Origin: Brucella daejeonensis
Lineage (GTDB): Bacteria > Pseudomonadota > Alphaproteobacteria > Rhizobiales > Rhizobiaceae
DNA length: 64,000 nt
Direction: 5' to 3'
Assembly (NCBI RefSeq): GCF_014199265.1
Contig: NZ_JACIJG010000008.1
Location: forward strand, 1 to 64,000
The translations under genes and the position numbers were made by a program. The stretch's first letter is position 1. Each line of letters begins with the position of its first letter. Positions 549 to 16,458 of this stretch are shown one piece after another. The notes beneath the pieces were generated by a model, which was not told where the DNA came from, did not search any database, and worked only from the letters and a program-made list of their open reading frames with translations.

Positions 549-602
549 AGCCAATCCGACATTCTGATAAACCAATCCGATAAAATTGCCAATCCGGTTG
601 GT
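549..602. promoter_or_regulatory. Direct repeats between regulator and rocF, possible Lrp operator
   Basis: The octamer CCAATCCG occurs three times in the same orientation, at 551, 572 and 589 (steps of 21 and 17 bases). The last copy is part of a partial palindrome CCAATCCGGTTGG. The spacing is about one and a half to two helical turns, which fits a multimeric Lrp/AsnC protein. The repeats lie between the divergent regulator start (530) and rocF start (661). Operator function is inference. Confidence 0.5.
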
Positions 603-660
603 TCACATCGCCAAGCGTAAATGGTCAATCTTGGTACAGAGATTAGAAGGACTCCAGATT

Positions 661-1581
661 ATGCATTGCAAGATTTTGGGATTGCCCGTTCAGGAAGGCA
701 CCGGCCGCGTAGGCTGCAATATGGGCCCGGATTCCTATCGCGCCGCGGGTATCGCGGCTGCCATCAGGGAACTCGGGCACGACTTCACCGATCTCGGCAA
801 TCTGGCGCCTGCCGTCCCGCGTCCGCTTGGCCATCCGAACCGGGCGATCAAGGCGCTTCCCCATGCTGTCGCATGGATCGAGGCGATCAGCGAAGCAGCC
901 TATCGCGAGAGCGCTGACGGTTTTCCGATCTTTCTCGGCGGTGACCACCTTCTGGCTGCCGGTACCGTGCCCGGCATTGCGCGCCGCGCTGCCGAAAAGG
1001 GACGCAAGCAGTTCGTCCTCTGGCTCGATGCCCATACGGATTTCCACACGCTGGAAACGACGGAAAGCGGTAATCTGCATGGCACGCCGGTGGCCTATTA
1101 CACTGGTCAGAAGGGTTTCGAAGGCTATTTCCCGGACCTCGTTGCCCCGGTTGATCCGAAGAATGTCTGTATGCTGGGCATCCGCAGCGTCGATCCCGCC
1201 GAACGCAATGCGATCAAGAAGACGGATGTTGCCGTCTATGACATGCGCCTGATCGACGAACACGGCGTTGCCGCCCTGCTGCGCCGCTTTCTGGAGCGGG
1301 TGACGGAGGAGGACGGTCTGCTGCATGTGAGCCTCGACGTCGATTTCCTCGATCCGGCCATTGCACCTGCCGTCGGCACGACCGTGCCGGGCGGCGCAAC
1401 GTTCCGCGAGGCGCATCTCATCATGGAAATGCTGCACGACAGCGGGCTGGTGACAAGCCTCGATCTCGTTGAACTCAATCCATTCCTCGATGAACGCGGG
1501 CGGACCGCGACCGTGATGGTGGACCTGATGGCAAGCCTGCTTGGCCGCAGCGTCATGGATCGTCCCACCATCAGCTACTGA
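661..1581 (+). CDS. rocF: Arginase
   Basis: A 306-residue ureohydrolase that hydrolyses L-arginine to ornithine and urea in the cytoplasm. All binuclear manganese motifs are visible: GGDH with following LLAAG, DAHTDFH, and SLDVDFLDP, plus the family ending SLDLVELNP. The ATG at 661 gives the normal family length and an N-terminus MHCKILGLPVQEG; an AGAAGGA ribosome-binding site lies upstream near 645. A longer in-frame start at 586 would run through the regulator's repeats. It is followed 38 bases later by ornithine cyclodeaminase, so together they convert arginine to proline. Induction by the divergent Lrp-type regulator is likely. Confidence 0.95.
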   Translation: MHCKILGLPVQEGTGRVGCNMGPDSYRAAGIAAAIRELGHDFTDLGNLAPAVPRPLGHPNRAIKALPHAVAWIEAISEAAYRESADGFPIFLGGDHLLAAGTVPGIARRAAEKGRKQFVLWLDAHTDFHTLETTESGNLHGTPVAYYTGQKGFEGYFPDLVAPVDPKNVCMLGIRSVDPAERNAIKKTDVAVYDMRLIDEHGVAALLRRFLERVTEEDGLLHVSLDVDFLDPAIAPAVGTTVPGGATFREAHLIMEMLHDSGLVTSLDLVELNPFLDERGRTATVMVDLMASLLGRSVMDRPTISY

Positions 1582-1619
1582 CGCAGCCCGCTTGGCTGCC
1601 AAATGCTCAAGGAGCAATG

Positions 1620-2696
1620 ATGACCCAACCGAACCTCAATATCGTTCCCTTCGTCAGCGTCGATCACATGATGAAGCTGGTGCTTTCCGTCGGTGTCGAG
1701 ACGTTTCTGAAGGAACTTGCCGATTATGTGGAAGAAGATTTCCGCCGCTGGGAAAGCTTCGACAAGACGCCGCGTGTGGCTTCGCATTCCAAGGAAGGCG
1801 TGATCGAACTGATGCCGACGAGCGACGGTACGCTCTACGGCTTCAAATATGTGAACGGCCATCCGAAGAATACGCGGGAAGGTCTTCAGACCGTGACGGC
1901 ATTCGGTGTTCTCGCCGATGTGGGCAGCGGCTATCCGATGCTGCTGACCGAAATGACCATTCTGACGGCGCTGCGCACGGCTGCGACTTCGGCCGTTGCC
2001 GCACGGCATCTGGCGCCGAAGAATGCCCGCACCATGGCGATCATCGGCAATGGCGCGCAAAGCGAGTTTCAGGCGATGGCCTTCAAGGCGATCCTCGGTA
2101 TCGACAAGCTGCGCCTCTATGACATCGACCGCGGCGCATCGGAAAAATGCGCCCGCAACCTTCAGGGTGCCGGTTTTGACATCGTGATCTGCAAGGACGT
2201 CGAGGAAGTGGTCGAGGGTGCCGAAATCATCACCACCGTGACCGCCGACAAGGCCAATGCGACGATCCTCACCGACAACATGGTTGGCGCTGGCGTGCAT
2301 ATCAATGCGGTCGGCGGCGATTGCCCCGGCAAGACGGAACTGCATGGCGATATTCTGCGCCGCTCGGATATTTTCGTGGAATATCCGCCGCAGACCCGCA
2401 TTGAAGGTGAAATACAGCAACTGCCGGAAGACTATCCGGTCAATGAGCTTTGGGAAGTCATTACCGGCAAGATCGCCGGGCGCAAGGACGCTCGCCAGAT
2501 CACGCTGTTCGACTCCGTGGGTTTCGCAACCGAGGATTTTTCGGCGCTGCGCTATGTGCGTGACAAGCTGAAGGATACGGGCCTTTACGAACCGCTCGAC
2601 CTTCTGGCCGACCCGGATGAGCCGCGCGATCTCTACGGCATGTTGCTGCGCCACGAAAAGCAGCTTCAGTCCGAAAAGACCAAGCCTGCGGCCTGA
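1620..2696 (+). CDS. ocd: Ornithine cyclodeaminase
   Basis: A protein of about 358 residues of the ornithine cyclodeaminase/mu-crystallin family, converting L-ornithine to L-proline and ammonia with bound NAD. Visible signs are the Rossmann motif MAIIGNGAQSEFQ and the substrate-site motif AVGGDCPGKTEL, whose Asp is the catalytic residue in characterised members. Two ATG codons are adjacent at 1617 and 1620. The GGAG at 1611-1614 lies five bases from the second, which I prefer. It forms an operon with rocF and completes the arginine-to-proline route. Confidence 0.93.
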   Translation: MTQPNLNIVPFVSVDHMMKLVLSVGVETFLKELADYVEEDFRRWESFDKTPRVASHSKEGVIELMPTSDGTLYGFKYVNGHPKNTREGLQTVTAFGVLADVGSGYPMLLTEMTILTALRTAATSAVAARHLAPKNARTMAIIGNGAQSEFQAMAFKAILGIDKLRLYDIDRGASEKCARNLQGAGFDIVICKDVEEVVEGAEIITTVTADKANATILTDNMVGAGVHINAVGGDCPGKTELHGDILRRSDIFVEYPPQTRIEGEIQQLPEDYPVNELWEVITGKIAGRKDARQITLFDSVGFATEDFSALRYVRDKLKDTGLYEPLDLLADPDEPRDLYGMLLRHEKQLQSEKTKPAA

Positions 2697-2850: not shown

Positions 2851-2967
2851 TTCCCTGCCGCGCTGACCGCGTCAGGGATGGGTTGCCGCAATCAGTGCGA
2901 TAAGCGCTTGGTGCCTTCTGCAATTTCCATTATGGAAGATGTGGGTTTCAAAAACGGGGCAGGCGGC

Positions 2968-4764
2968 ATGAATGACAGCGCGCAAGGTGAAACGATCTTC
3001 GGACAATCAGGGCGAGACGTTCGGTCTGCCGCCGCGCCCATCGTTTTTTGCGATACGCTGGGACTTTACCAGCAGCCTCTTGGCCAGCCTCTCGACACTG
3101 TTGTCCTGTTTGCAAGCCCCTGGGGGCTGGAAGATCTTTGCACGACTCGGAAATTCTGGCGCATCATCGCCGATGAACTCGCCGCACGCGGCATAGGTTC
3201 GTTCCGCTTCGACTGGCCCGGCACGGGCGACGGACGCGACGATATCGACTTTTCGAAGGGGCTTCAGGTCTGGCGGGACGCACTCGTCGAGGCGGCGACG
3301 AAGGCCCGCACGCTGTCCGGGGCCAGCCGTGTCGTGATCATCGGCCAGAGCCTTGGAGCCGCCATTGCCGCCGAAACAGCGCCGCAAATCGAAGGTGTCG
3401 AGGCACTGGCTCTGCTCGCGCCGGTTATTTCCGGGCGATTTTACATACGCGAGCTTGCCGTCTGGTCGAGCATGGTCGATGCCGATCTGGGACTGACGGA
3501 CGATCAGAGGATAAGGGACGGCGTGGCCATCGCATCGTTGAAGATGCAGCCGGAAATCGCTGCCGATGTGAAGAAGCTCAATCTCCTGTCGCTCACGGCA
3601 AAGCCTGCACCGGCCTGTCTCCTGCTGGCGCGTACCGACCGTCCGAACGATGCCGAGCTTGCCATCCATCTGGAAGGGCTTGGCGCCAATGTGACGGTGG
3701 AATCCTTTGACGGCTACCGCAATCTGATCTCCAACCCGGTCATTACCCGCTTGCCCCTGGACGTGGCAGATCGTCTCGTTGCGTGGGTAGCGGGGATAGC
3801 CGGCGAGACGCCTGCCAGCAGTGAAGCCGACGATGCCGATCTTGGCGGCGAACTTGCCGGCGACGGGTTTTTCGACACGCCGGTTTCCTTCGGACCGAAC
3901 AACCGTCTTTCCGGCGTGCTGTGTGCGCCTGCCGGGCTGCGTCGAGGCAGGACGGTCCTGTTCCTGTCATCGTCTTATGACCGCCGCATCGGCTGGGGCC
4001 GCACCACCGTCGAGATGGCGCGCAAGCTTGCGCGTGAGGGCATTGCATCCCTGCGTTTTGATCTTGCCAATGCAGGCGACAGCCCGCCCAATCCGGCCAT
4101 GCCCGAACAGGTGCTTTATACGCATGGGCCGGAGGCCGACGTTGCCGATGCTCTCGATTATCTCGATGCAATCGGCTTGGGGCGTCCTGTGGTCGCGGGA
4201 CGATGCAGCGGCGCGTTTCTCGGCTTCTATTGCGCGGTCAAGGACGAGCGCGTTTCCGGGGCGATTCTCGTCAATCCGGTCACGCTCTACTGGGCGCCGG
4301 GGCGTTCCGTAGAGGAAGCGGTGCGCGAGGGCAATCGCACGCTGGAAGATTATGGCAGCCGCGCCATGCGTCTGGAAACCTTCCAACGCCTGTTTCGCGG
4401 CGAGCTGGATTTTCGCGCCATCCTGCGCAATCTTGCACGCGGTGTCGGCGGGCGTATCCGAGGGGTAGGGCGCAAGCTGTTTCGCGGTCACACGCCGGAA
4501 GGCCGGGCGATCTATTCGGCCTTTGACGAGTTGAAGTCGCGTCAGGTCCCGCTGGCTCTGGTCTTTGCCGAAAAAGACAGCGGGCGCGAGCATTTCAATT
4601 TCTATTTCGACCAGACGGGTGACAGGGTACAGCGGTTCGATAATGTGTCGGTGTCGATCATCCCGAACGCCGACCATAATCTGACGCCGGAACATTCACG
4701 CGAAATCTATATCGACGCGATTCGTTCTCTGGCTCTGAAGTCGTCAGAACCAGACGATGCGTGA
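2968..4764 (+). CDS. Tandem alpha/beta hydrolase
   Basis: A 598-residue protein made of two alpha/beta-hydrolase domains in series. Domain 1 carries the nucleophile elbow GQSLGA and domain 2 the elbow GRCSGA, with a late PNADHNLTPEH histidine region that could complete the second triad. Each half also has the strand-plus-oxyanion pattern FRFDWPGTGDG or LRFDLANAGDS. No signal peptide is seen, so it is probably cytoplasmic. I chose ATG 2968 (MNDSAQGE) because upstream residues are not protein-like; ATG 2932 is possible. Substrate is unknown. Such double hydrolases occur near polysaccharide genes elsewhere, but no such genes are adjacent here. Its last 21 bases overlap the convergent GH2 gene. 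Confidence 0.75.
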   Translation: MNDSAQGETIFGQSGRDVRSAAAPIVFCDTLGLYQQPLGQPLDTVVLFASPWGLEDLCTTRKFWRIIADELAARGIGSFRFDWPGTGDGRDDIDFSKGLQVWRDALVEAATKARTLSGASRVVIIGQSLGAAIAAETAPQIEGVEALALLAPVISGRFYIRELAVWSSMVDADLGLTDDQRIRDGVAIASLKMQPEIAADVKKLNLLSLTAKPAPACLLLARTDRPNDAELAIHLEGLGANVTVESFDGYRNLISNPVITRLPLDVADRLVAWVAGIAGETPASSEADDADLGGELAGDGFFDTPVSFGPNNRLSGVLCAPAGLRRGRTVLFLSSSYDRRIGWGRTTVEMARKLAREGIASLRFDLANAGDSPPNPAMPEQVLYTHGPEADVADALDYLDAIGLGRPVVAGRCSGAFLGFYCAVKDERVSGAILVNPVTLYWAPGRSVEEAVREGNRTLEDYGSRAMRLETFQRLFRGELDFRAILRNLARGVGGRIRGVGRKLFRGHTPEGRAIYSAFDELKSRQVPLALVFAEKDSGREHFNFYFDQTGDRVQRFDNVSVSIIPNADHNLTPEHSREIYIDAIRSLALKSSEPDDA

Positions 4765-7194
4765 CGAACCGGCGATGCGAATTTCGCCTGAAGGCTTTTC
4801 GGGCGTTTCGTTGCGTGGAAGGAGCGCGACGCGCCTCGTCTCGTTGGGTGCGAGGTGAAACCAGTTTTCTGCGGGGCGCCAGTCGCCCGCATCGATGCTG
4901 ACGGACTGAGCCAGAACCTGCGTCTTCAGATCGAGGAACCAGTTTCCGTTCTCTTCAACAGTTGCGGCTTCGATAATCGCATCGTGGAAGGCCTTTGTTC
5001 GGCCAAGCGGGAAGTGAAAGGCCTCGGCGACGGTCTCGCCGTTGTGTTTCAGTCGCGCGACGGTCACGTCATGGGCCGGAGGGCCGAAACGATAGGCGTA
5101 GGTGATATCGAAAAACGCGCCGAACAGGTCTGTGGCGGGGATCGTGACTGCTGAACGGCCTGCGAGGGACAGTTCGCGACGGCCGGTCACCACGGGCTGC
5201 GAACCGGCGCGCAGACAGGCCACATCGAGCGAGAGATCGGCAGTGCGCGCCTTTTCATTCAATACGTGAATCGCAAGGCCATTGACGCCTTCATCGGTCA
5301 AGGCGACCTGCTGCGGGCGGGAGGCGCGCTTGAGGCCATGCCACGAGGCCTTGGGTTCGCCGGTTGCATCGATCATGCCCCAGCCCGCACCGGGCAGCAC
5401 GTCCTGAAACATCCAGACAAGCGCGCCGAAGCAGGTGCTTCCCGGCCTGCGCCATTCGGCAAGGGTCGCTTCCATCACTTCCGCGGTCACAGCGCGGGAA
5501 AGATGGAGATATTGTTCCACATCCTCGCGGCGCAGGCGCGCCGGATCGTAACCGTAGAGCGTTTCCAGATAGTGATCGCGCACGTCCTCGAAGTCCCACG
5601 ACACGCCACGGTCGCGCGGCACACGTGCTTTCCAGCGCGGATCGTGAACGGGTGGAACGTCGAGATGGGTTTTCAGCGTGCGGGCTTCCGGCACGTTGGA
5701 AAAGGCAAGGCATTCCGTGGCGAAGCGTACTTCGGCGCGTCGTGCGTCCTCCAACGGACGGCAATAGGCGCTGACGCCGTAATAATGGCTTACACCTTCA
5801 TTGCTGGTGAAGGGCAGGGCGCCATCGCAAGGCGAGTTCGGCACATAAGGAATGCCGGGGCAGAGCGCGCGCGCCACGCCGGGCAGTATCTCCTCGGTGA
5901 GCGCGCCCTTCCAGGTCGTTTCCGGCAGGCCCATCATCGCGCCCTGCTGGTAGATTTCGCTGCCGCCGCAAAGGACGGTCAGCGACGGTGCGTGTCCGAC
6001 AGCGGCGAGGAGCTGGGATGCTTCAGCCTGTACTTTCCCGACAAATGCCTCGTCCTTCACCGGATAGTCGAAGTTGGCGAACATGAAGTCCTGCCACACC
6101 ATGATGCCAAGCTCGTCGCAAAGGGCATAGAAATCCGGTGTTTCATAGGCGGTGATGCCGCTCAGGCGCAGCATGTTCATGCCTGCTTCCTGTGCAAGTT
6201 TCAGCCACGGCTCATAATCGTCGCGCGTGCCCGGCAGGCGGATAATGTCGGCGGAACTCCATACCGCGCCCCGGCAGAAGATTTTTTCGCCATTGATCCT
6301 GAGTGCAAATCCCTTGCCGTCTGCGCCTCGGTCCACGCCGATGCGGCGAAAACCAGTCCGTCCGAGCGACCGCATTTTTCCATCGAACGACAGCTCGACA
6401 TCATGAAGCGTTGGATTGCCATGCGTGTGCGGCCACCATGGTTCGACTGACGGGATGGTCAATTTCACCCGCCATTGCCCGTCGACCGACCGCGCACAGG
6501 CGATATGCCGGCCAGCACAATGGAGAATCAGTTCTGCGGCCTTGCCGTCATAAATAAAGCTGACGTCGAGTTCGCCGTCTCCACCTTCTGTCAGTGTTGC
6601 CCGAATGACGATCTCGCTGATGGCTTCGGTATCGGCGCGGCTGATCGTTATCGGACGCCATGGACCAACGGCATGTATCTCCGGGCACCAGCCCGGCATA
6701 TAGCCCAGTGCCGTGGTGCGTACGAGGCGCAGACCCTGATTGCTCATCAATTGCGTGCGCCAGCGGGCGCGCGGGCCTTTCTGATCGAGACGCGATGCGA
6801 GCGCACGAAAACAGAGCGCAAGCTCGTCCCCGCCGCTCAGAACGACGGGCAGATCATGGTGCAGGAACATGCTGTCGGTTTGCAGCAGCAATTCGCCGTT
6901 GAGGAAAATATCGCAAATGGTGGCGAGGCCATCGAAATGCAGCGTGGCGGGGCCGGGCGCTGCATCGAGATCGAGGAAATACCAGGCGTCCCGATTGTCG
7001 AGCGGTATCGGCTTGTTACGGTCGAAGCGTCCGGCCTTTTCGAGCGCTTCGGCTACGGTGCCGGGAACCGGCGCTTCAAGGCCGTTTCCGTCACGCCCGA
7101 CATCGCCGGGTTTCCGGGCAGCATCCGGTGTGGTGACGAAAAGCCGCCAGCCTTTCGCGAGCGAACGACTGGCGGCATTTGCGTCCATCGGCAT
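4744..7194 (-). CDS. Glycoside hydrolase family 2 (beta-mannosidase-like) protein
   Basis: A protein of about 816 residues with the GH2 order: N-terminal sugar-binding jelly roll, immunoglobulin-like domain, TIM barrel (FRRIGVDRG...INGEKIFCRG, LRLSGITAYETPDFY, LGIMVWQDFMFANFDYP) and C-terminal beta domains. The expected nucleophile is the Glu in RFATECLAF. The acid/base Glu sits in LCGGSEIYQ, where the usual Asn before it is replaced by Ser, so activity or specificity may be unusual. No signal peptide is seen. Alternative ATG starts are at 7206 and 7188. It follows the DUF1839 stop almost directly and is the last gene of the carrier-protein operon, suggesting a sugar-containing substrate or product. 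Confidence 0.8.
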   Translation of the reverse strand: MPMDANAASRSLAKGWRLFVTTPDAARKPGDVGRDGNGLEAPVPGTVAEALEKAGRFDRNKPIPLDNRDAWYFLDLDAAPGPATLHFDGLATICDIFLNGELLLQTDSMFLHHDLPVVLSGGDELALCFRALASRLDQKGPRARWRTQLMSNQGLRLVRTTALGYMPGWCPEIHAVGPWRPITISRADTEAISEIVIRATLTEGGDGELDVSFIYDGKAAELILHCAGRHIACARSVDGQWRVKLTIPSVEPWWPHTHGNPTLHDVELSFDGKMRSLGRTGFRRIGVDRGADGKGFALRINGEKIFCRGAVWSSADIIRLPGTRDDYEPWLKLAQEAGMNMLRLSGITAYETPDFYALCDELGIMVWQDFMFANFDYPVKDEAFVGKVQAEASQLLAAVGHAPSLTVLCGGSEIYQQGAMMGLPETTWKGALTEEILPGVARALCPGIPYVPNSPCDGALPFTSNEGVSHYYGVSAYCRPLEDARRAEVRFATECLAFSNVPEARTLKTHLDVPPVHDPRWKARVPRDRGVSWDFEDVRDHYLETLYGYDPARLRREDVEQYLHLSRAVTAEVMEATLAEWRRPGSTCFGALVWMFQDVLPGAGWGMIDATGEPKASWHGLKRASRPQQVALTDEGVNGLAIHVLNEKARTADLSLDVACLRAGSQPVVTGRRELSLAGRSAVTIPATDLFGAFFDITYAYRFGPPAHDVTVARLKHNGETVAEAFHFPLGRTKAFHDAIIEAATVEENGNWFLDLKTQVLAQSVSIDAGDWRPAENWFHLAPNETRRVALLPRNETPEKPSGEIRIAGSSRIVWF

Positions 7195-7195
7195 T

Positions 7196-8194
7196 TCAGG
7201 CGGCATCACGGACGAGTTCCGTTGCAAGAGCCTCCATCATGCGATCCCAGGCGTCGGCAGCCGGTTGCAGGCTTCCGGCCAGGGCGTCGAATTTCTTGCG
7301 CATGACGGCGCGGGCAAGCTGGAACTGGACAGCCTTGGCGGTTTCCGCGATCTGCAAGGCATCTGCCGAGGCCGATGCAAAGCGCCTGCCTTGCCCCAGC
7401 CACTCCAGATGGCTTGCCGCGAGCTCGAAATTCGCGCCGAGCTGGCGCAGCGTGTTGAAAGCATATTTATGGAAGAAGCCGAACTGACGTTCCGCGATTG
7501 CTTCCACCTGTGCTGGAAAAAGCTGCGCGAAGGCCCTGATCGGGTTCTCCCCCGGTCTGCGCGCAAAATGGCGCGGCAGGAGAATTTCGGCGACACGTCG
7601 CTGATGAGCCTCGTCCGGCACGTTCTTCGGAAATTTGGCGAATTCCGTATAAGGCAGGAATGGCGGATCGTTCTCCGTCAGGTGCCGCTGGAAAACGCCA
7701 TCGAAATCCTCGCCTTCCAGATGATAGAAGCCGCCATTGTGGAAGTAGTCCAGCGCGCGGTTTTCGACATCCATGCGGTTGATGGCGATGGTGGTCTTGC
7801 CATGTTCGGTGCGATAGCTCACGCCGTGCGTATCCGGCATGAAGAAGCTGTCCATCTCCACCATGCACAGGCGACCGCGCCCGATCTGGGCCGCAATATG
7901 GCTCTCGACGTTGTCGAAGATCGCAAGTTCCGTTGCGCGCAGGCCGTAAAGCGCCTCGAGGTCTTCCAACGGCACCTTGAAAAAGGTGAACTGGTCGCCC
8001 TCGAAATCCTGTGTCAGCGTGAAACCGAGCATGGCTTCAGGGGCGGCGCCCAAAGTCGCCAGAACTTCGATCCAGAGATCGACGTAGCAATTGGTTTCCG
8101 GCCAGATGCGCGTCTGCGCGTGAAGTGCGTGCGGCTCGTAACGTTCGGGTGCGATGTTCGGAAAAACAGCCTGCATAGAAGCGATCAGCCCCAC
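7196..8194 (-). CDS. DUF1839 family protein
   Basis: A protein of 332 residues recognised as DUF1839, a family of unknown function that I associate with amino acid:[carrier protein] ligases. Visible conserved stretches include [30 protein letters not shown] and [14 protein letters not shown]. No signal or membrane segment is seen. The start is a GTG at 8192-8194 preceded by AAGGA, overlapping the ligase stop by ten bases; an ATG at 8176 without a clear ribosome-binding site is the alternative. The overlap indicates translational coupling to the ligase. It might act on the aminoacyl-S-carrier protein, for example as transferase, but this is inference from position only. Confidence 0.75.
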
Positions 8195-9093
8195 AATTCC
8201 TTGCGCGTGTTTTCAGGCCAGGCTTCGACGTCCAGGCCATGGTGATGAAACAGCGCCAGTGCGATGCGTTCCAGTCCGAAACCGACGCAGGCGGTATGCG
8301 CCACGGAACCGTCGTGCAGCGAGAGGCCCCATTTCACGCCGAACTGATCCTGATGATAGTTGAAGCTCATGCAGGCGGTCGGCTTTTCGGTGCTGGTGAT
8401 CGGGATCAGCAGTTCGAATTTCAGGTTCTGGTCGCGCTGGTTGTTGACCAGCATCTTGCCCGCGCGTCCGAAGAAGGGATCGTTGGCGACGTCGATCTCG
8501 ACCGGCAGGCCAACCCTCTTCATCATTTCCGTGCCGCGCTCGATCCAGAGCTGGCGGAAGGCCATCACGTCGGCTTCTGTGCCCATGCGCACATATTCGC
8601 GCATACGGAAAAGCTGTTGCCGGGCCGGGTCCACCGAAGGTTCATGGCGGAAGCAATAGGATTGCAGATCGTATAGCCCGCCGCCCTGCGGCAACGGTCC
8701 GCGCCGGGCAACGGTCGGATAGAGTGGATAGCAGGCCGCGGGCGTCAGCACGATGTCCGTCGCCTTCTGTTCCAGTGTCCAGTCCTCGCCTTCGTCCATG
8801 CACTTGATGAGACTGATATGGTCAAGCTCGCAGCCGCAGAAGCTGTGCACGGTGCCCGCCAGTTGCGGGAAGCTTTTCATATAGCCGCTTTTTTCGAAAA
8901 AAGCGCGGTTCATGCCGGGCGGGAAGCGGATCGCTTCCGCGCCGTCATTGCCGCCTGTTCGGTCGATCAGCCGTTCGAAAGCCTGGATGACGTCCTCGAA
9001 CCGACCGGAACGGCCATAAAGCCCGTCCACGCCGGTGTCGATCAGCAGGCCGGAATCGAAAAGCCGGTCGAGAAACGATCTTTGAGCATCCAT
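8185..9093 (-). CDS. Amino acid:[carrier protein] ligase (seryl-tRNA synthetase-like)
   Basis: A 302-residue class II synthetase catalytic core lacking a tRNA-binding domain. It matches the small family from Bradyrhizobium and Agrobacterium shown to adenylate small amino acids (Gly/Ala) and load them on the phosphopantetheine of a dedicated carrier protein. Motif 2 is seen as FRHEPS with RMREY, and motif 3 as [12 protein letters not shown]. The probable zinc ligands of the atypical SerRS-type site are C121, E166 and C269. The start MDAQRSF at 9093 lies five bases after the acyl-CoA dehydrogenase stop. Its partner is almost certainly the 83-residue carrier protein two genes upstream. Amino acid specificity cannot be read from sequence. 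Confidence 0.9.
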
Positions 9094-9098
9094 TGCGA

Positions 9099-10271
9099 TT
9101 ATCCCAAAAGGCTGTTGTTCTGTTTGTGAATGAGCAGCATCGTGGCCGTATTGCCGAGAATGCGCTCGTTGGAAATCATGAGCTGTGCGGAATGTGCATC
9201 GCGCAGATGGCGTCCGAGGCTGTAGGGCGTGCCGTTCTTGTAGCCCATGATGCCGCAAACCAGCATGGCGTGGTTGATGATCTGGAGGATGGTCTGCGAG
9301 GCGGCAATCTTGAGATTGTTCATCGCAATCGCAAAACCCATCGAGGCCAGCTTGTCGGGATCGTGCTTCGCGTCGCGATAGGTCTTGAGACAGGCGACGA
9401 TTTCCGACTTCAGCATCTGAAGCATGTTGGATGCTTCGGCAACACGCAATACGCCCGGCTGCGGTGCGCCCGGATTGCGCCGCGCGGCGGCGCGCACGAA
9501 TGCCTGTGCCCGGTTGACCGCATCGACGGCGATGCCGTACCAGAGCGAACTCCACAGCGTATGCGACTGCGCCAGCATGGATTGCGCCGCGATTTCGGCG
9601 AAGGGATGCGGCAGTATCTGCACCTTTTTTGCCTCGCCGCGGAAGACGAAACCTTCGGAGCAGGTGCCGCGCATGCCGAGCGTGTCCCAGTCATTGGTCT
9701 TTTCGAGCGTATACTGGTCCTTGAGGAACACCGTCATCACCTGATCGGACGAAGCCGCGTCCTTGTGTGCGCGCGACGTGATCAGGATGGCGTCGGCGTA
9801 GACGCCGTAAGAGATGACCGTTGCATTCTTCTCCAGGCGGCACGTGTCGCCTTCGACCTCGATGGCGCAGATCGAATTGCGCAGATCGCCACCGATGCCG
9901 CCCTCCGTCGTCGCGGAAGCGAGCAGCAACTGCTCCCTGGCGATCCGCCGCATGAAATCGCGATGCCAGTCTACCGACTGGCCATGTTCCACGAGGCTCG
10001 AGAGCTTGATGTGATGCATGGCGAAAATCATCGCGCTCGACGCGCAGGACTGGCCCAGGATGCAGCACAGTTCGGCAATCTGGTCGATTCCGGCGCTTTC
10101 GCCGCCCAGTTCGCCCGGCACCTGAATGCCGAGCAGGCCTTCGGCCTTCATCGCGTCGATCGCCTCACGCGGGAAGCGGCCTTCCTTATCGACGCCATCG
10201 GAAAATTTGCCCGCTATGGCCGCAACGCGGCCCATGCGCTCTGAAAGACTGTTCCCCGCACCGACATTCAT
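9099..10271 (-). CDS. Acyl-CoA dehydrogenase family flavoprotein
   Basis: A 390-residue protein with the acyl-CoA dehydrogenase layout: N-terminal helical domain with [14 protein letters not shown], a middle beta domain with [21 protein letters not shown] and GTCSEGFVF, and a C-terminal helical bundle. It probably binds FAD. In this operon the natural substrate may be the aminoacyl thioester on the carrier protein rather than a fatty acyl-CoA, so an oxidised (dehydro- or imino-) amino acid is possible; that is inference. Its ATG overlaps the carrier-protein TAA by one base (TAATG), which implies coupled translation. Confidence 0.85.
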
Positions 10272-10522
10272 TATACGGCCTCTTTATCCTTGAGAATCTG
10301 GCTGATCGTCTGTTCGATGGCCTTGATGCTCGCGAAAGACTTGCGGTTGAGATACTGGTCCGGGAATTCGATATCGAACCTGTCTTCGAGACCGAGCATG
10401 AGCTGGACCGATGCAAAGGACGACAGGCCCGCGCTGTAAAGATCGGCGTCGTCGGCGATGTCCGTCACCGGCGTCGGCAATCCGCCGACCCTGGACAGAA
10501 GTTCGCGAATGGATTCGTTCAT
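10271..10522 (-). CDS. Acyl carrier protein (aminoacyl carrier)
   Basis: An 83-residue carrier protein. The phosphopantetheine attachment site is Ser35 in AGLSSFASVQ, which differs from the DSL of fatty-acid ACP. The helix after it (LMLGLEDRFDIEFPD) is typical. ATG 10522 is preceded by AGGGAG eight bases away; the frame is open further upstream but without a site. As first gene of the operon followed by an acyl-CoA dehydrogenase and the amino acid:[CP] ligase, it is the expected acceptor of the activated amino acid. It is too divergent to be the housekeeping AcpP. Confidence 0.9.
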   Translation of the reverse strand: MNESIRELLSRVGGLPTPVTDIADDADLYSAGLSSFASVQLMLGLEDRFDIEFPDQYLNRKSFASIKAIEQTISQILKDKEAV

Positions 10523-14219: not shown

Positions 14220-15176
14220 ATGGCACCTCGTATTGCGGTTTTGGGTTGCGGCTATTGGGGCGGCAACCACATTCGTACCCTGAAGAGCCTCGGAGTCCTT
14301 CAGGCAGTTTCAGATTCACGGACAGAACAGGCGGAACGCTTCGCGACCGAGTTCAACGTTCCCAGCGTTCCCGTCGACGAATTGTTCTCCCGTCCGGATA
14401 TTGACGGCATCGTTCTCGCATTGCCGGCGCAGTTTCATGCGCAATATGCCATCGAGGCCGTGAAGAACGGCAAGGACGTTCTGGTCGAAAAGCCGATCGC
14501 GCTCGATATTCCGGCCGCCGAGGCCGAAGTCGAGGCCGCGCGCGACAATGGCCGGATTTTCATGGTCGGTCATGTTTTGCGCTTCCATCCGGCTTTCGAG
14601 AAGCTGCTCGACATGGTGAAGAGTGGCGAACTTGGCGATATTCGCTATGTGCATTCGCATCGCGTCGGGCTTGGAAAATTTCACAGCGAATTCGACGCCC
14701 TGTGGGACCTTGCGCCGCACGATCTCTCGATGATCCTTGCCATCACCGGCGAGGAACCGACCGCAGTTCGCGGCGAAGGCGTCGCGACGCTCGATCATCT
14801 CAGCGATTTCGCCCATCTTCATCTGGAATTCCCGAACGGTATTCGCGGACATCTGTTCGCCTCGCGGCTGAATGCCTATCGCGAACGCCGCCTGAGCGTT
14901 ACCGGCACCAAGGGCATGGCGGTGTTCGACGACGGTGAGCCCTGGGACCGCAAACTTGCGCTCTACAGCCATGAAGTCTGGCGGGAAGACGACCGCTGGT
15001 CTTTCAAATCCGCGGAGCCTGCCTATATTCCGGTCGAGGAAGGGATGCCCCTGACCCGCGAATTGCAGCATTTCCTGCATTGCATCGAAACACGCGAAAA
15101 GCCGCGTACGGATGGCTGGGAGGCGATCAGCGTTCTGCGTATCCTTACCGAAGGTACGGTGCGCCATCCCCGATAG
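14220..15176 (+). CDS. gnnA: Gfo/Idh/MocA oxidoreductase, probably UDP-GlcNAc 3-dehydrogenase
   Basis: A 318-residue NAD-dependent oxidoreductase with N-terminal Rossmann motif VLGCGYWGGNHIRTL and the family Lys motif VEKPIAL. It is followed 157 bases later by a DegT-type aminotransferase. In bacteria making lipid A from 2,3-diamino-2,3-dideoxyglucose, this pair (GnnA, GnnB) oxidises C3 of UDP-GlcNAc and transaminates the ketone. Brucella-group lipid A is known to contain diaminoglucose, which supports the call. An alternative is a WbpB-like dehydrogenase for another 3-amino sugar. ATG 14220 has only a weak AAGG ribosome-binding site. Confidence 0.75.
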   Translation: MAPRIAVLGCGYWGGNHIRTLKSLGVLQAVSDSRTEQAERFATEFNVPSVPVDELFSRPDIDGIVLALPAQFHAQYAIEAVKNGKDVLVEKPIALDIPAAEAEVEAARDNGRIFMVGHVLRFHPAFEKLLDMVKSGELGDIRYVHSHRVGLGKFHSEFDALWDLAPHDLSMILAITGEEPTAVRGEGVATLDHLSDFAHLHLEFPNGIRGHLFASRLNAYRERRLSVTGTKGMAVFDDGEPWDRKLALYSHEVWREDDRWSFKSAEPAYIPVEEGMPLTRELQHFLHCIETREKPRTDGWEAISVLRILTEGTVRHPR

Positions 15177-15333
15177 GGGGGGCTGCGCGGTTCGCTTTAC
15201 GCCGCGTCAAGCGGTGTTACAGGAATCGCAAAACTTTGAACGCGCCAGCCATGGCAGGGCAGGGCGCAAGCGAATAAACAGGTTGCCGAGGATTCGCACA
15301 TAGACTGTGCGGGCCAGATATATTGGAGCCAAC

Positions 15334-16458
15334 ATGCAGTTCATTGATCTTGGAGCGCAGCGCGCGCGTATCGAAGACCGTCTCAATGCCGCCATTTCCA
15401 AGGTTGTTGCGGAAGGCCGTTATATTCTTGGACCGGAAGTCGCCGAATTCGAAAAGAAGCTCGGCGAATATCTGGGCGTCGAGCATGTGATTGCCTGCGC
15501 CAACGGCACCGACGCCTTGCAGATGCCCTTGATGGCACGGGGTATCGGTCCGGGTCATGCGGTTTTCGTCCCCTCCTTCACTTTTGCCGCCACGGCGGAA
15601 GTCGTCGCGCTTGTTGGCGCGGAGCCGGTATTCGTCGATGTGGATCCGGACAGCTACAACATGAATGTCGAGCAGCTTGAAGCTGCCGTCGCCGCTATCC
15701 GCAAGGAAGGCCGTCTGGAGCCGAAGGCGATCATCCCGGTCGATCTGTTCGGTCTGGCTGCCGATTATAACGGCATCACGGCCATTGCCGACCGTGAAGG
15801 CCTGTTCATCATAGAAGATGCAGCCCAGTCCATCGGCGGCAAGCGCGACAATGTCATGTGCGGCGCTTTCGGTCATGTCGGGTCGACCAGCTTCTATCCG
15901 GCCAAGCCGCTCGGCTGCTATGGCGATGGCGGTGCGATGTTCACGAACGATGCGGAGCTTGCCGACACGCTGCGTTCGGTCCTGTTCCACGGCAAGGGCG
16001 AAACGCAATACGACAATGTCCGCATTGGCATCAATTCGCGTCTCGACACGATCCAGGCCGCTGTTCTCCTTGAGAAGCTGGCGATCCTCGAAGATGAAAT
16101 GGAAGCCCGCGACCGTATTGCCAAGCGCTACAATGAAGCGCTGAAGGATGTGGTGAAGGTTCCGGCACTTCCTGCTGGCAATCGTTCTGCCTGGGCGCAA
16201 TATTCCATCGAGAGCGAAAACCGCGATGGGCTGAAGGCGCATCTTCAGGCGGAAGCCATTCCTTCGGTTATCTATTATGTGAAGCCGCTGCATCTCCAGA
16301 CGGCCTATAAGCATTATCCGGTCGCGCCGGGCGGTCTGCCGGTTTCCGAAGCCCTGCCATCGCGCATTCTGAGCCTGCCGATGCACCCTTACCTGTCGGA
16401 AGCGGATCAGGACAAGATTATCGGCGCGATCCGTGGTTTCCACGGCAAGAAGAGCTGA
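15334..16458 (+). CDS. gnnB: DegT/DnrJ/EryC1 aminotransferase, probably UDP-3-keto-GlcNAc transaminase
   Basis: A 374-residue PLP-dependent sugar aminotransferase. Family marks are GTDALQMPLMARGIGPG, FVDVDPDSYNMN, the Asp motif IIEDAAQSIGG, and the PLP-lysine segment STSFYPAKPLGCYGDGGAM (Lys in PAKPLG). MQFIDLG at 15334 is the start: TTGGAG lies six bases upstream, and it is the typical N-terminus. With the preceding dehydrogenase it should form UDP-GlcNAc3N for lipid A with two amide-linked chains more than the enteric form. A perfect terminator follows. Confidence 0.8.
   Translation: MQFIDLGAQRARIEDRLNAAISKVVAEGRYILGPEVAEFEKKLGEYLGVEHVIACANGTDALQMPLMARGIGPGHAVFVPSFTFAATAEVVALVGAEPVFVDVDPDSYNMNVEQLEAAVAAIRKEGRLEPKAIIPVDLFGLAADYNGITAIADREGLFIIEDAAQSIGGKRDNVMCGAFGHVGSTSFYPAKPLGCYGDGGAMFTNDAELADTLRSVLFHGKGETQYDNVRIGINSRLDTIQAAVLLEKLAILEDEMEARDRIAKRYNEALKDVVKVPALPAGNRSAWAQYSIESENRDGLKAHLQAEAIPSVIYYVKPLHLQTAYKHYPVAPGGLPVSEALPSRILSLPMHPYLSEADQDKIIGAIRGFHGKKS

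What the first reader, a model, noticed from the sequence alone, without database searches (positions are those of the whole stretch)
4744..10522. Carrier-protein operon with a tRNA-independent amino acid ligase, a dehydrogenase, DUF1839 and a GH2 protein
Five tightly packed genes (stop/start overlaps or gaps of a few bases) join an 83-residue ACP (Ser35), an acyl-CoA dehydrogenase, a SerRS-like amino acid:[carrier protein] ligase, DUF1839 and a GH2-like protein. Ligase and carrier activities are known from related bacteria (established family knowledge), but the end product is, to my knowledge, unknown. The gene content suggests that an amino acid is activated as a thioester, possibly oxidised while bound to the carrier, moved by DUF1839 and linked to, or released from, a sugar by the GH2 protein. 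This is the best candidate here for an undescribed pathway.
Basis: partly seen in the sequence, partly recalled or inferred. Interest (0 to 1): 0.8.

Follow-up and report, generated by a model that had tools for sequence, protein, structure and literature searches.

The report
Amino-acid-to-sugar joining gene cassette
Six bacterial genes that travel together appear to load an amino acid onto a small carrier protein and then attach it to a sugar, probably one bound for the cell surface, by a route predicted in 2010 whose product is still unknown.

Summary
The operon is real and correctly placed: five packed genes, ACP, acyl-CoA-dehydrogenase-fold flavoprotein, SerRS-type amino acid:[carrier protein] ligase, DUF1839, GH2. 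The unit recurs in many genera and in two proteobacterial classes.

In 21 distinct rhizobial loci it is fused to a Wzx-type flippase.

Best reading: glycine or alanine is loaded on the ACP, possibly oxidised, and amide-linked by DUF1839 to an amino sugar of a lipid-linked or exported glycan. The core idea is in print as a prediction (PMC2922099, note added in proof); the fold match and flippase-linked sixth gene sharpen it. Product, acceptor and GH2 step are unknown.

The parts
10271..10522 (-). Aminoacyl carrier protein (83 aa), phosphopantetheine site Ser35
   Evidence: NF005480 117.5 bits, cut-off 72; nearest solved chains 4h2w_C and Atu2571 2jq4; Ser35 in 104 of 104 aligned rows
9099..10271 (-). 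Acyl-CoA-dehydrogenase-fold flavoprotein (390 aa), likely oxidase or oxygenase of the carrier-bound amino acid
   Evidence: PF02771/PF00441; nearest by sequence DnmZ, KijD3, SCAD; SCAD base position is Ile/Val, IVD base position Ser/Ala/Thr/Cys, His86 and His237 in 105 of 105 rows
8185..9093 (-). SerRS-type amino acid:[carrier protein] ligase (302 aa)
   Evidence: NF005479 516 bits, cut-off 357; Bll0957-type chains 4h2w and 3mey 330 and 313 bits; Cys121, Glu166, Cys269 in at least 99% of 106 rows
7196..8176 (-). DUF1839, predicted carrier-protein-dependent amide synthase (326 aa), Cys30-Thr128-His146
4744..7206 (-). GH2 glycosidase, beta-mannosidase-like (820 aa from ATG 7206, 827 aa from TTG 7227); no signal peptide seen by eye
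   Evidence: PF22666, PF17753; beta-mannosidases 5n6u, 7op6; Glu424 and Glu505 (827-aa numbering) in at least 99% of 101 rows
2932..4764 (+). Sixth partner: tandem alpha/beta-hydrolase; C-terminal domain with Cys443-Asp567-His600 (numbered from a start at 2878), N-terminal domain without conserved nucleophile
   Evidence: TIGR03101- and TIGR03100-like below cut-offs; with DUF1839 in 8 of 8 and 17 of 17 genomes, 0 of 17 controls; flippase fusion in 22 of 60 clustered ORFs, 21 distinct

Best explanation
A cytoplasmic cassette that aminoacylates an amino sugar. Step 1 (near-certain by family): the ligase activates a small amino acid, probably glycine or alanine, and loads it as a thioester on the dedicated ACP. 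Step 2 (inferred): the acyl-CoA-dehydrogenase-fold flavoprotein oxidises the carrier-bound amino acid, more likely by oxygenation than by classical desaturation. Step 3 (strongly suggested by fold): DUF1839 takes the acyl group on Cys30 and passes it to the amino group of a sugar, making an amide, as CcbD does. Step 4 (weak): the GH2 enzyme trims a glycosyl residue from the acceptor or product. Step 5 (inferred): the product belongs to a lipid-linked or exported glycan; the Cys-type alpha/beta-hydrolase protein edits, transfers or releases a group at the flippase.
Against: No product, acceptor or activity was observed. In the annotated Azospirillum, Mycetohabitans and Phyllobacterium records no polysaccharide cluster adjoins the cassette, only single sugar-transferase genes several kb away in two of them; none was seen by eye in the window. 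So a soluble glycoconjugate remains possible. Four or more unlinked hydrolase genes (L196, L197, L199, L200) have ABC-transporter-type neighbours by eye, not glycan genes. The DUF1839 triad order is swapped relative to CcbD and CtaG. An intracellular GH2 with both catalytic glutamates has no obvious place in an export pathway. In Shinella (L191) the only hydrolase gene sits in a different carrier-protein module, so it may serve that one there. G171 and G326 have hydrolase, ligase and ACP without DUF1839 or GH2, so the hydrolase is tied to the ligase, not to DUF1839 alone. Two more class genomes have weak partial hydrolase hits (G186, G318) without a ligase match.
Confidence: 0.55

Rival explanations
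1. Same chemistry, but the product is a soluble small molecule (an aminoacyl-amino-sugar metabolite, like a stripped-down lincosamide) and not part of a surface glycan. GH2 matures it and the alpha/beta-hydrolase protein is a thioesterase or activating hydrolase.
For: CcbD, CtaG and AziU3 are known from small-molecule pathways (azinomycin for AziU3 is recalled). The cassette stands alone, sometimes on plasmids, with unrelated flanks. In 4 of the 9 nearest named loci (L056, L057, L059, L060) the six genes stay together while the window's outer neighbours are not found within the flanks.
Against: Flippase fusion in 21 distinct loci and flippase genes beside the hydrolase gene; sugar-transferase and Wzc neighbours in L222-L225. 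No small-molecule exporter gene was seen to recur beside the cassettes in general (clusters, by eye; an ABC transporter recurs in 18 loci, mostly Agrobacterium).
Confidence: 0.25
2. Nonribosomal peptide-type role: the carrier-bound amino acid is passed to another amino acid or amine, and the sugar genes are incidental.
For: CtaG is described as a proposed peptidyl transferase in closthioamide synthesis (PMC6772006, one passage). The authors of the ligase work proposed a nonribosomal peptide role (as reported in PMC2922099, passage).
Against: GH2 and the hydrolase gene were found in every intact DUF1839 locus or genome checked for them (GH2; hydrolase; the broken locus L091 keeps only the start of GH2). 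No second adenylation or condensation gene in the 5 annotated stretches seen.
Confidence: 0.1
3. DUF1839 is a thioesterase or protease-like hydrolase that releases the oxidised amino acid; the set makes a free modified amino acid.
For: Papain-like fold; papain-like enzymes are commonly hydrolases (PMC10318531 passages).
Against: The full-length match, including the helical C-terminal part, is to CcbD, CtaG and AziU3 only, of which CcbD is a shown and CtaG a proposed acyl transferase; GH2 goes with DUF1839.
Confidence: 0.1

Closest known systems
Predicted SerRS-paralogue gene neighbourhood (Biol Direct 2010 5:48, PMC2922099, note added in proof)
   Same: ACP, redox enzyme, SerRS-like ligase, conserved uncharacterised protein Atu2574 (I read this as the DUF1839 gene; not checked against the Atu2574 sequence), glycosidase, liposaccharide genes; amide ligation to a surface amino sugar predicted, with oxidation 'probably via monoxygenation'.
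   Different: The word flippase does not occur in its main text; in the passages read I saw no tandem hydrolase and no CcbD relation (its supplement was not seen); untested.
Lincosamide condensation (CcbD/LmbD with carrier protein)
   Same: Carrier-bound amino acid joined to an amino sugar by a papain-like enzyme; same predicted fold.
   Different: Loading by a stand-alone NRPS-type adenylation domain there (PMC4351081, passages) and a SerRS-type ligase here; triad Cys-His-Glu against Cys-Thr-His; no GH2 or flippase-linked hydrolase known to me there.
CtaG (closthioamide) and AziU3 (azinomycin)
   Different: Different substrates; 12-14% identity.
Amino acid:[carrier protein] ligases Bll0957 and Atu2573 with their carrier proteins
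   Same: Over the family cut-off; Gly or Ala loading (PMC5370406, passage).
   Different: The unnamed locus L153 (Bradyrhizobium-like, my guess) has an ACP-like ORF (by eye), a DH-like gene and a ligase, and its genome has no DUF1839 or GH2 match.
Exosortase-A-associated hydrolases 1 and 2 (TIGR03100/TIGR03101)
   Same: Both domains of the sixth protein resemble them; in Shinella L191 it sits with TIGR03098- and TIGR03099-like genes and an ACP-like ORF.
   Different: Below the curated cut-offs; fused in tandem; an exosortase was not looked for.

Membership tests
Amino acid:[carrier protein] ligase (NF005479) | Family score over the curated cut-off | tested here: met
   516.3 bits, cut-off 357
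Amino acid:[carrier protein] ligase (NF005479) | Zinc-binding Cys-Glu-Cys (recalled for Bll0957) | tested here: met
   Cys121, Glu166, Cys269 in at least 99% of 106 rows; equivalence to the Bll0957 zinc ligands is from recall
Amino acid:[carrier protein] ligase (NF005479) | Loads Gly or Ala on its ACP | not testable with these tools
   Needs an assay
Aminoacyl carrier protein (NF005480) | Score over cut-off and phosphopantetheine serine | tested here: met
   117.5 bits, cut-off 72; Ser35 in 104 of 104 rows
CcbD/CtaG kind of amide synthase | Papain-like domain plus helical C-terminal part, whole length | tested here: met
CcbD/CtaG kind of amide synthase | Catalytic cysteine | tested here: met
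   Cys30 in 106 of 106 rows, at the start of helix 30-41; matching to CcbD C19/CtaG C11 is by position in the fold, no residue alignment was printed
CcbD/CtaG kind of amide synthase | Catalytic His before Asp/Glu | tested here: not met
   Thr128 (105 of 106, one Ser) and His146 (106 of 106): order swapped (the swap was reported for DUF1839 in PMC10318531, passages). So filed as a relative, not a member
CcbD/CtaG kind of amide synthase | Arg patch that binds the carrier protein | tested here: inconclusive
   Arg289 and Arg293 in 106 of 106 rows have the 4-residue spacing of CcbD Arg312/Arg316, but no residue-level structural alignment was available
BtrH family (PF14399) | Profile match | tested here: not met
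   Only PF08893 reported at E up to 0.001
Acyl-CoA dehydrogenase | Fold | tested here: met
   PF02771 and PF00441; Foldseek dehydrogenase rows from E 3.9e-16
Acyl-CoA dehydrogenase | Catalytic Glu at the MCAD/SCAD or IVD place | tested here: not met
   Ile 99, Val 6 of 105; Ser 96, Ala 5, Thr 3, Cys 1 of 105; the column equivalence was set by eye against recalled ACAD sequences
Flavin N-oxygenase or monooxygenase (KijD3, DnmZ, DszC) | Closer to these than to dehydrogenases | tested here: inconclusive
   Top sequence rows DnmZ and KijD3 with SCADs close behind; top fold row KijD3 1.5e-16 against butyryl-CoA dehydrogenase 3.9e-16
GH2 beta-mannosidase | Both catalytic glutamates | tested here: met
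   Glu424 and Glu505 in at least 99% of 101 rows, aligned to the NE and SE glutamates of 7op6 (their catalytic roles recalled)
Exosortase-A hydrolases 1 and 2 | Curated cut-off | tested here: not met
   86.8 of 168.45 and 68.3 of 202.75 bits

The most novel reading that the evidence does not exclude
A widespread, unassigned route for decorating an exported bacterial glycan with an amino acid or oxidised amino acid: a tRNA-independent SerRS-type ligase and dedicated ACP feed a CcbD-like amide synthase with a swapped Cys-Thr-His centre, and a Cys alpha/beta-hydrolase, fused to a Wzx-type flippase in many rhizobia, couples the modification to export.
Probability: 0.4. Interest if true: 0.8.

Novelty: new variant of a known kind. 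Interest (0 to 1): 0.58.

Why it matters
Structures of the ligase and carrier protein have existed for years, yet the purpose of loading amino acids on these carriers was still listed as unknown in 2022 (PMC9437257, passage). A CcbD-like fold for DUF1839 names the chemistry to test (amide to an amino sugar). The flippase-fused sixth gene names the place to look (a lipid-linked or exported glycan). That makes an open question directly testable in a harmless Rhizobium.

Tried and rejected
BtrH (butirosin) membership for DUF1839: considered because both are papain-like; no PF14399 match, and the solved structures nearest the model are CcbD, AziU3 and CtaG. No BtrH row was listed, which says nothing against kinship.

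Sequence search for a solved relative of DUF1839: best chain E 0.051, glutamate-tRNA ligase, over 67 positions; rejected as chance.

The fold search of the dehydrogenase-like protein does not separate oxygenases from dehydrogenases.

Gfo/Idh and DegT genes at 14220-16458 as the source of the amino sugar: considered, then set aside. They lie beside the cassette only in part of the nearest loci and look like the lipid A diamino-sugar pair GnnA/GnnB (recalled).

EpmA- and EpmB-type genes near the cassette in 48 of 94 loci (domains shown for L028): probably shared Rhizobiaceae synteny; no link tested.

Paper searches (all 10 allowed): searches found none. 'DUF1839' occurs in one paper. Mocibob 2010 (PMC2930448) is not held, so what I say of it is recall or other papers' summaries. 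PMC10064268 was a false lead (GH28). PMC11941606 (one mention of Atu2573) was not opened. No paper was read whole; listings or passages only.

GNAT reading of the ~285-aa proteins in L153, L155, L191: related to each other (BLASTP E 1e-17 or better), but no Pfam or NCBIfam match; kept only as a remark.

Parts given and rows dropped. One search fetched 20 of the 26 other DUF1839-positive genomes (not G001, G006, G015, G018, G024, G030). One search tested 14 of the 26 named loci without a nearby hydrolase gene, plus L091, G214 and G045. One search fetched 10 of the 17 new positives. Five of 59 plasmid records were opened. In the conservation counts proteins under 85% of the window protein's length were left out (DH 105, GH2 101, hyd 73, LIG 106, ACP 104, DUF1839 106 rows kept, window included). 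Rows are not independent: eight pairs of loci carry identical DUF1839 proteins: L028/L106, L037/L054, L040/L061, L041/L058, L042/L059, L045/L060, L046/L056, L078/L079. The Fisher values ignore phylogeny.

Full report
Observation. The five genes are present exactly where described, on the minus strand, with gaps or overlaps of -1, 5, 8 and -11 (or -32) bases. Domain and family assignments hold: DUF1839 470 bits, GH2 N-terminal and Ig domains, acyl-CoA dehydrogenase N and C domains, PP-binding; amino acid-[ACP] ligase 516 bits over a cut-off of 357 and its carrier-protein family 117.5 over 72. The nearest solved chains are Bll0957-type proteins for the ligase and 4h2w_C and Atu2571 for the ACP.

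Conservation. DUF1839 was found in 20 of 60 near genomes and 8 of 387 of the class, the window's own genome counted in both; I fetched 20 of the 26 other positives. All 20 have ACP-DH-LIG-DUF1839 in that order; GH2 follows in 19 of 20 and the hydrolase gene is near in 18 of 20. Of 80 named loci, 79 have all five genes in order; the other, L091, is a broken remnant. Ten of the 17 new positives of a phylum-wide sample are 10 of 10 for the five genes, four of them outside the window's class. Five annotated plasmid records (Phyllobacterium, Rhizobium leguminosarum, two Azospirillum, and Mycetohabitans, a betaproteobacterium) have all five, and four of the five show the hydrolase gene next in line. 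In G214, whose DUF1839 locus lacks GH2, GH2 lies on another contig directly before the hydrolase gene. These sets overlap in part (seven loci occur in both the unnamed and the named set).

A sixth gene. The convergent gene at 2932-4764 encodes two alpha/beta-hydrolase domains. It lies within the flanks in 53 of 80 named loci. In four of the nine nearest loci (L056, L057, L059, L060) the window's outer neighbours are not found but all six genes stay together. In the 387 class genomes DUF1839 is in 8, the ligase over its cut-off in 13, with 8 more below it, and the hydrolase in 10 with E below 1e-30, two of these over part of its length (G171 57-513, G326 32-419 of 610), plus two weaker partial hits. 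All 8 DUF1839 genomes have ligase and hydrolase. G171 and G326 have ligase, ACP and hydrolase close together, without detectable GH2. A further test took the 17 DUF1839-positive genomes of the phylum sample not seen before and 17 DUF1839-negative ones (12 from the window's own family): hydrolase in 17 of 17 and 0 of 17 (five of the 17 had already shown it); ligase in 17 of 17 and 1 of 17. Where it was not near the cassette I looked in 17 genomes (14 of the 26 such named loci, plus L091, G214, G045) and found it elsewhere in 17 of 17.

What the sixth protein is. Only its C-terminal domain looks catalytic: Cys443 and His600 in 73 of 73 rows, Asp567 in 70 of 73; the N-terminal nucleophile place is Gly 46, Ser 18, Arg 9. 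In 22 of 60 clustered ORFs (21 distinct; 19 in records titled Rhizobium, 2 'Rhizobiales bacterium') it is fused behind a Wzx-type flippase (Polysacc_synt_3 domain shown for L028). Flippase genes lie beside it in L186, L190 and L191 and near it in L226. Against this, L196, L197, L199 and L200 have ABC-transporter-type neighbours by eye.

Flavoprotein. The sequence lacks Glu at the two places where acyl-CoA dehydrogenases carry their base (column equivalence set by eye and recall). Its nearest solved relatives include the nitrososynthases DnmZ and KijD3, but short-chain dehydrogenases are close behind. Oxygenation is favoured, as the 2010 note also guessed, but not shown.

GH2. It aligns to beta-mannosidases with both catalytic glutamates in place, conserved in at least 99% of 101 rows. 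No orthologue was found in the 5 genomes with an over-cut-off ligase but no DUF1839. It therefore belongs to the DUF1839 branch of the pathway; its step is not known.

Setting. In several relatives the cassette lies near polysaccharide genes: a priming sugar transferase directly upstream of the ACP (L222, L223) or nearby (L036, L225), Wzc (L222, L224), glycosyltransferases, a GumK-like protein (L132). L226 adds a polysaccharide deacetylase, which could free an amine. In the Azospirillum, Mycetohabitans and Phyllobacterium records no such cluster adjoins, nor in the window by eye.

Known or new. [quoted passage not shown] The ten paper searches listed under Tried and rejected turned up no later test in the open-licence library searched. 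New here, as far as those searches show: the CcbD/CtaG/AziU3 fold match, the constant tandem hydrolase, its flippase fusion, and the profile tests.

Verdict. A real, conserved, functionally unassigned pathway. Chemistry is now fairly well constrained; product and acceptor are not. Confidence in the amide-to-amino-sugar reading for an exported glycan 0.55.

Noticed in passing
L191:2813-11328 (Shinella yambaruensis genome, G456): The only copy of the sixth gene found in this genome sits with an ACP-like ORF (by eye), an AMP ligase like TIGR03098 (566 bits, cut-off 592), a PLP decarboxylase like TIGR03099 (414, cut-off 478), an ATP-grasp_ST and a flippase: an exosortase-A-like carrier module sharing the same hydrolase.
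   Followed up: partly
L153:10041-10916, L155:5421-6278, L191:7062-7907: A related ~285-aa family without Pfam or NCBIfam match accompanies two ligase loci that lack DUF1839 and the Shinella module; it might replace DUF1839 as acyltransferase.
   Followed up: partly
L154:6085-10275, L157:8413-11506: A smaller variant with ACP, ligase and the hydrolase but no DUF1839 or flavoprotein found by tblastn, and no GH2 in the genome.
   Followed up: partly
L222:12750-13685 (G697) and G638:C159:127-1047: Two genomes outside the window's class carry a second, diverged DUF1839: about 1.3 kb past the end of the cassette's GH2 in L222, and on the contig that bears the hydrolase gene in G638.
   Followed up: no
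L028:4164-6991 and other loci: EpmA- and EpmB-type genes lie just upstream of the ACP in 48 of 94 loci; EF-P, EpmA-type and radical-SAM domains shown for L028 only.
   Followed up: partly
L091 (R. leguminosarum Vaf-46 contig): A broken remnant of the cassette: second half of the ligase, DUF1839 and the start of GH2, with no ACP or DH in the 4 kb before.
   Followed up: no
window 14220-16458: Gfo/Idh oxidoreductase and DegT aminotransferase pair, by recall like GnnA/GnnB of lipid A diamino-sugar synthesis.
   Followed up: no
window genus: The cassette is patchy in the genus: DUF1839 in 17 of 34 same-genus genomes; in two low-completeness assemblies (G001, G006) the match is split in two pieces.
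   Followed up: no
PMC10888616 (passage): A Bradyrhizobium table lists bll0957 and bll0958 (acyl-CoA dehydrogenase) both changed 3.0-fold in a phaR mutant: a regulatory hint for the related ligase locus.
   Followed up: no
window 586-2696: Arginase and ornithine cyclodeaminase genes next to a Lrp-like regulator (by eye), a separate ornithine catabolism unit.
   Followed up: no
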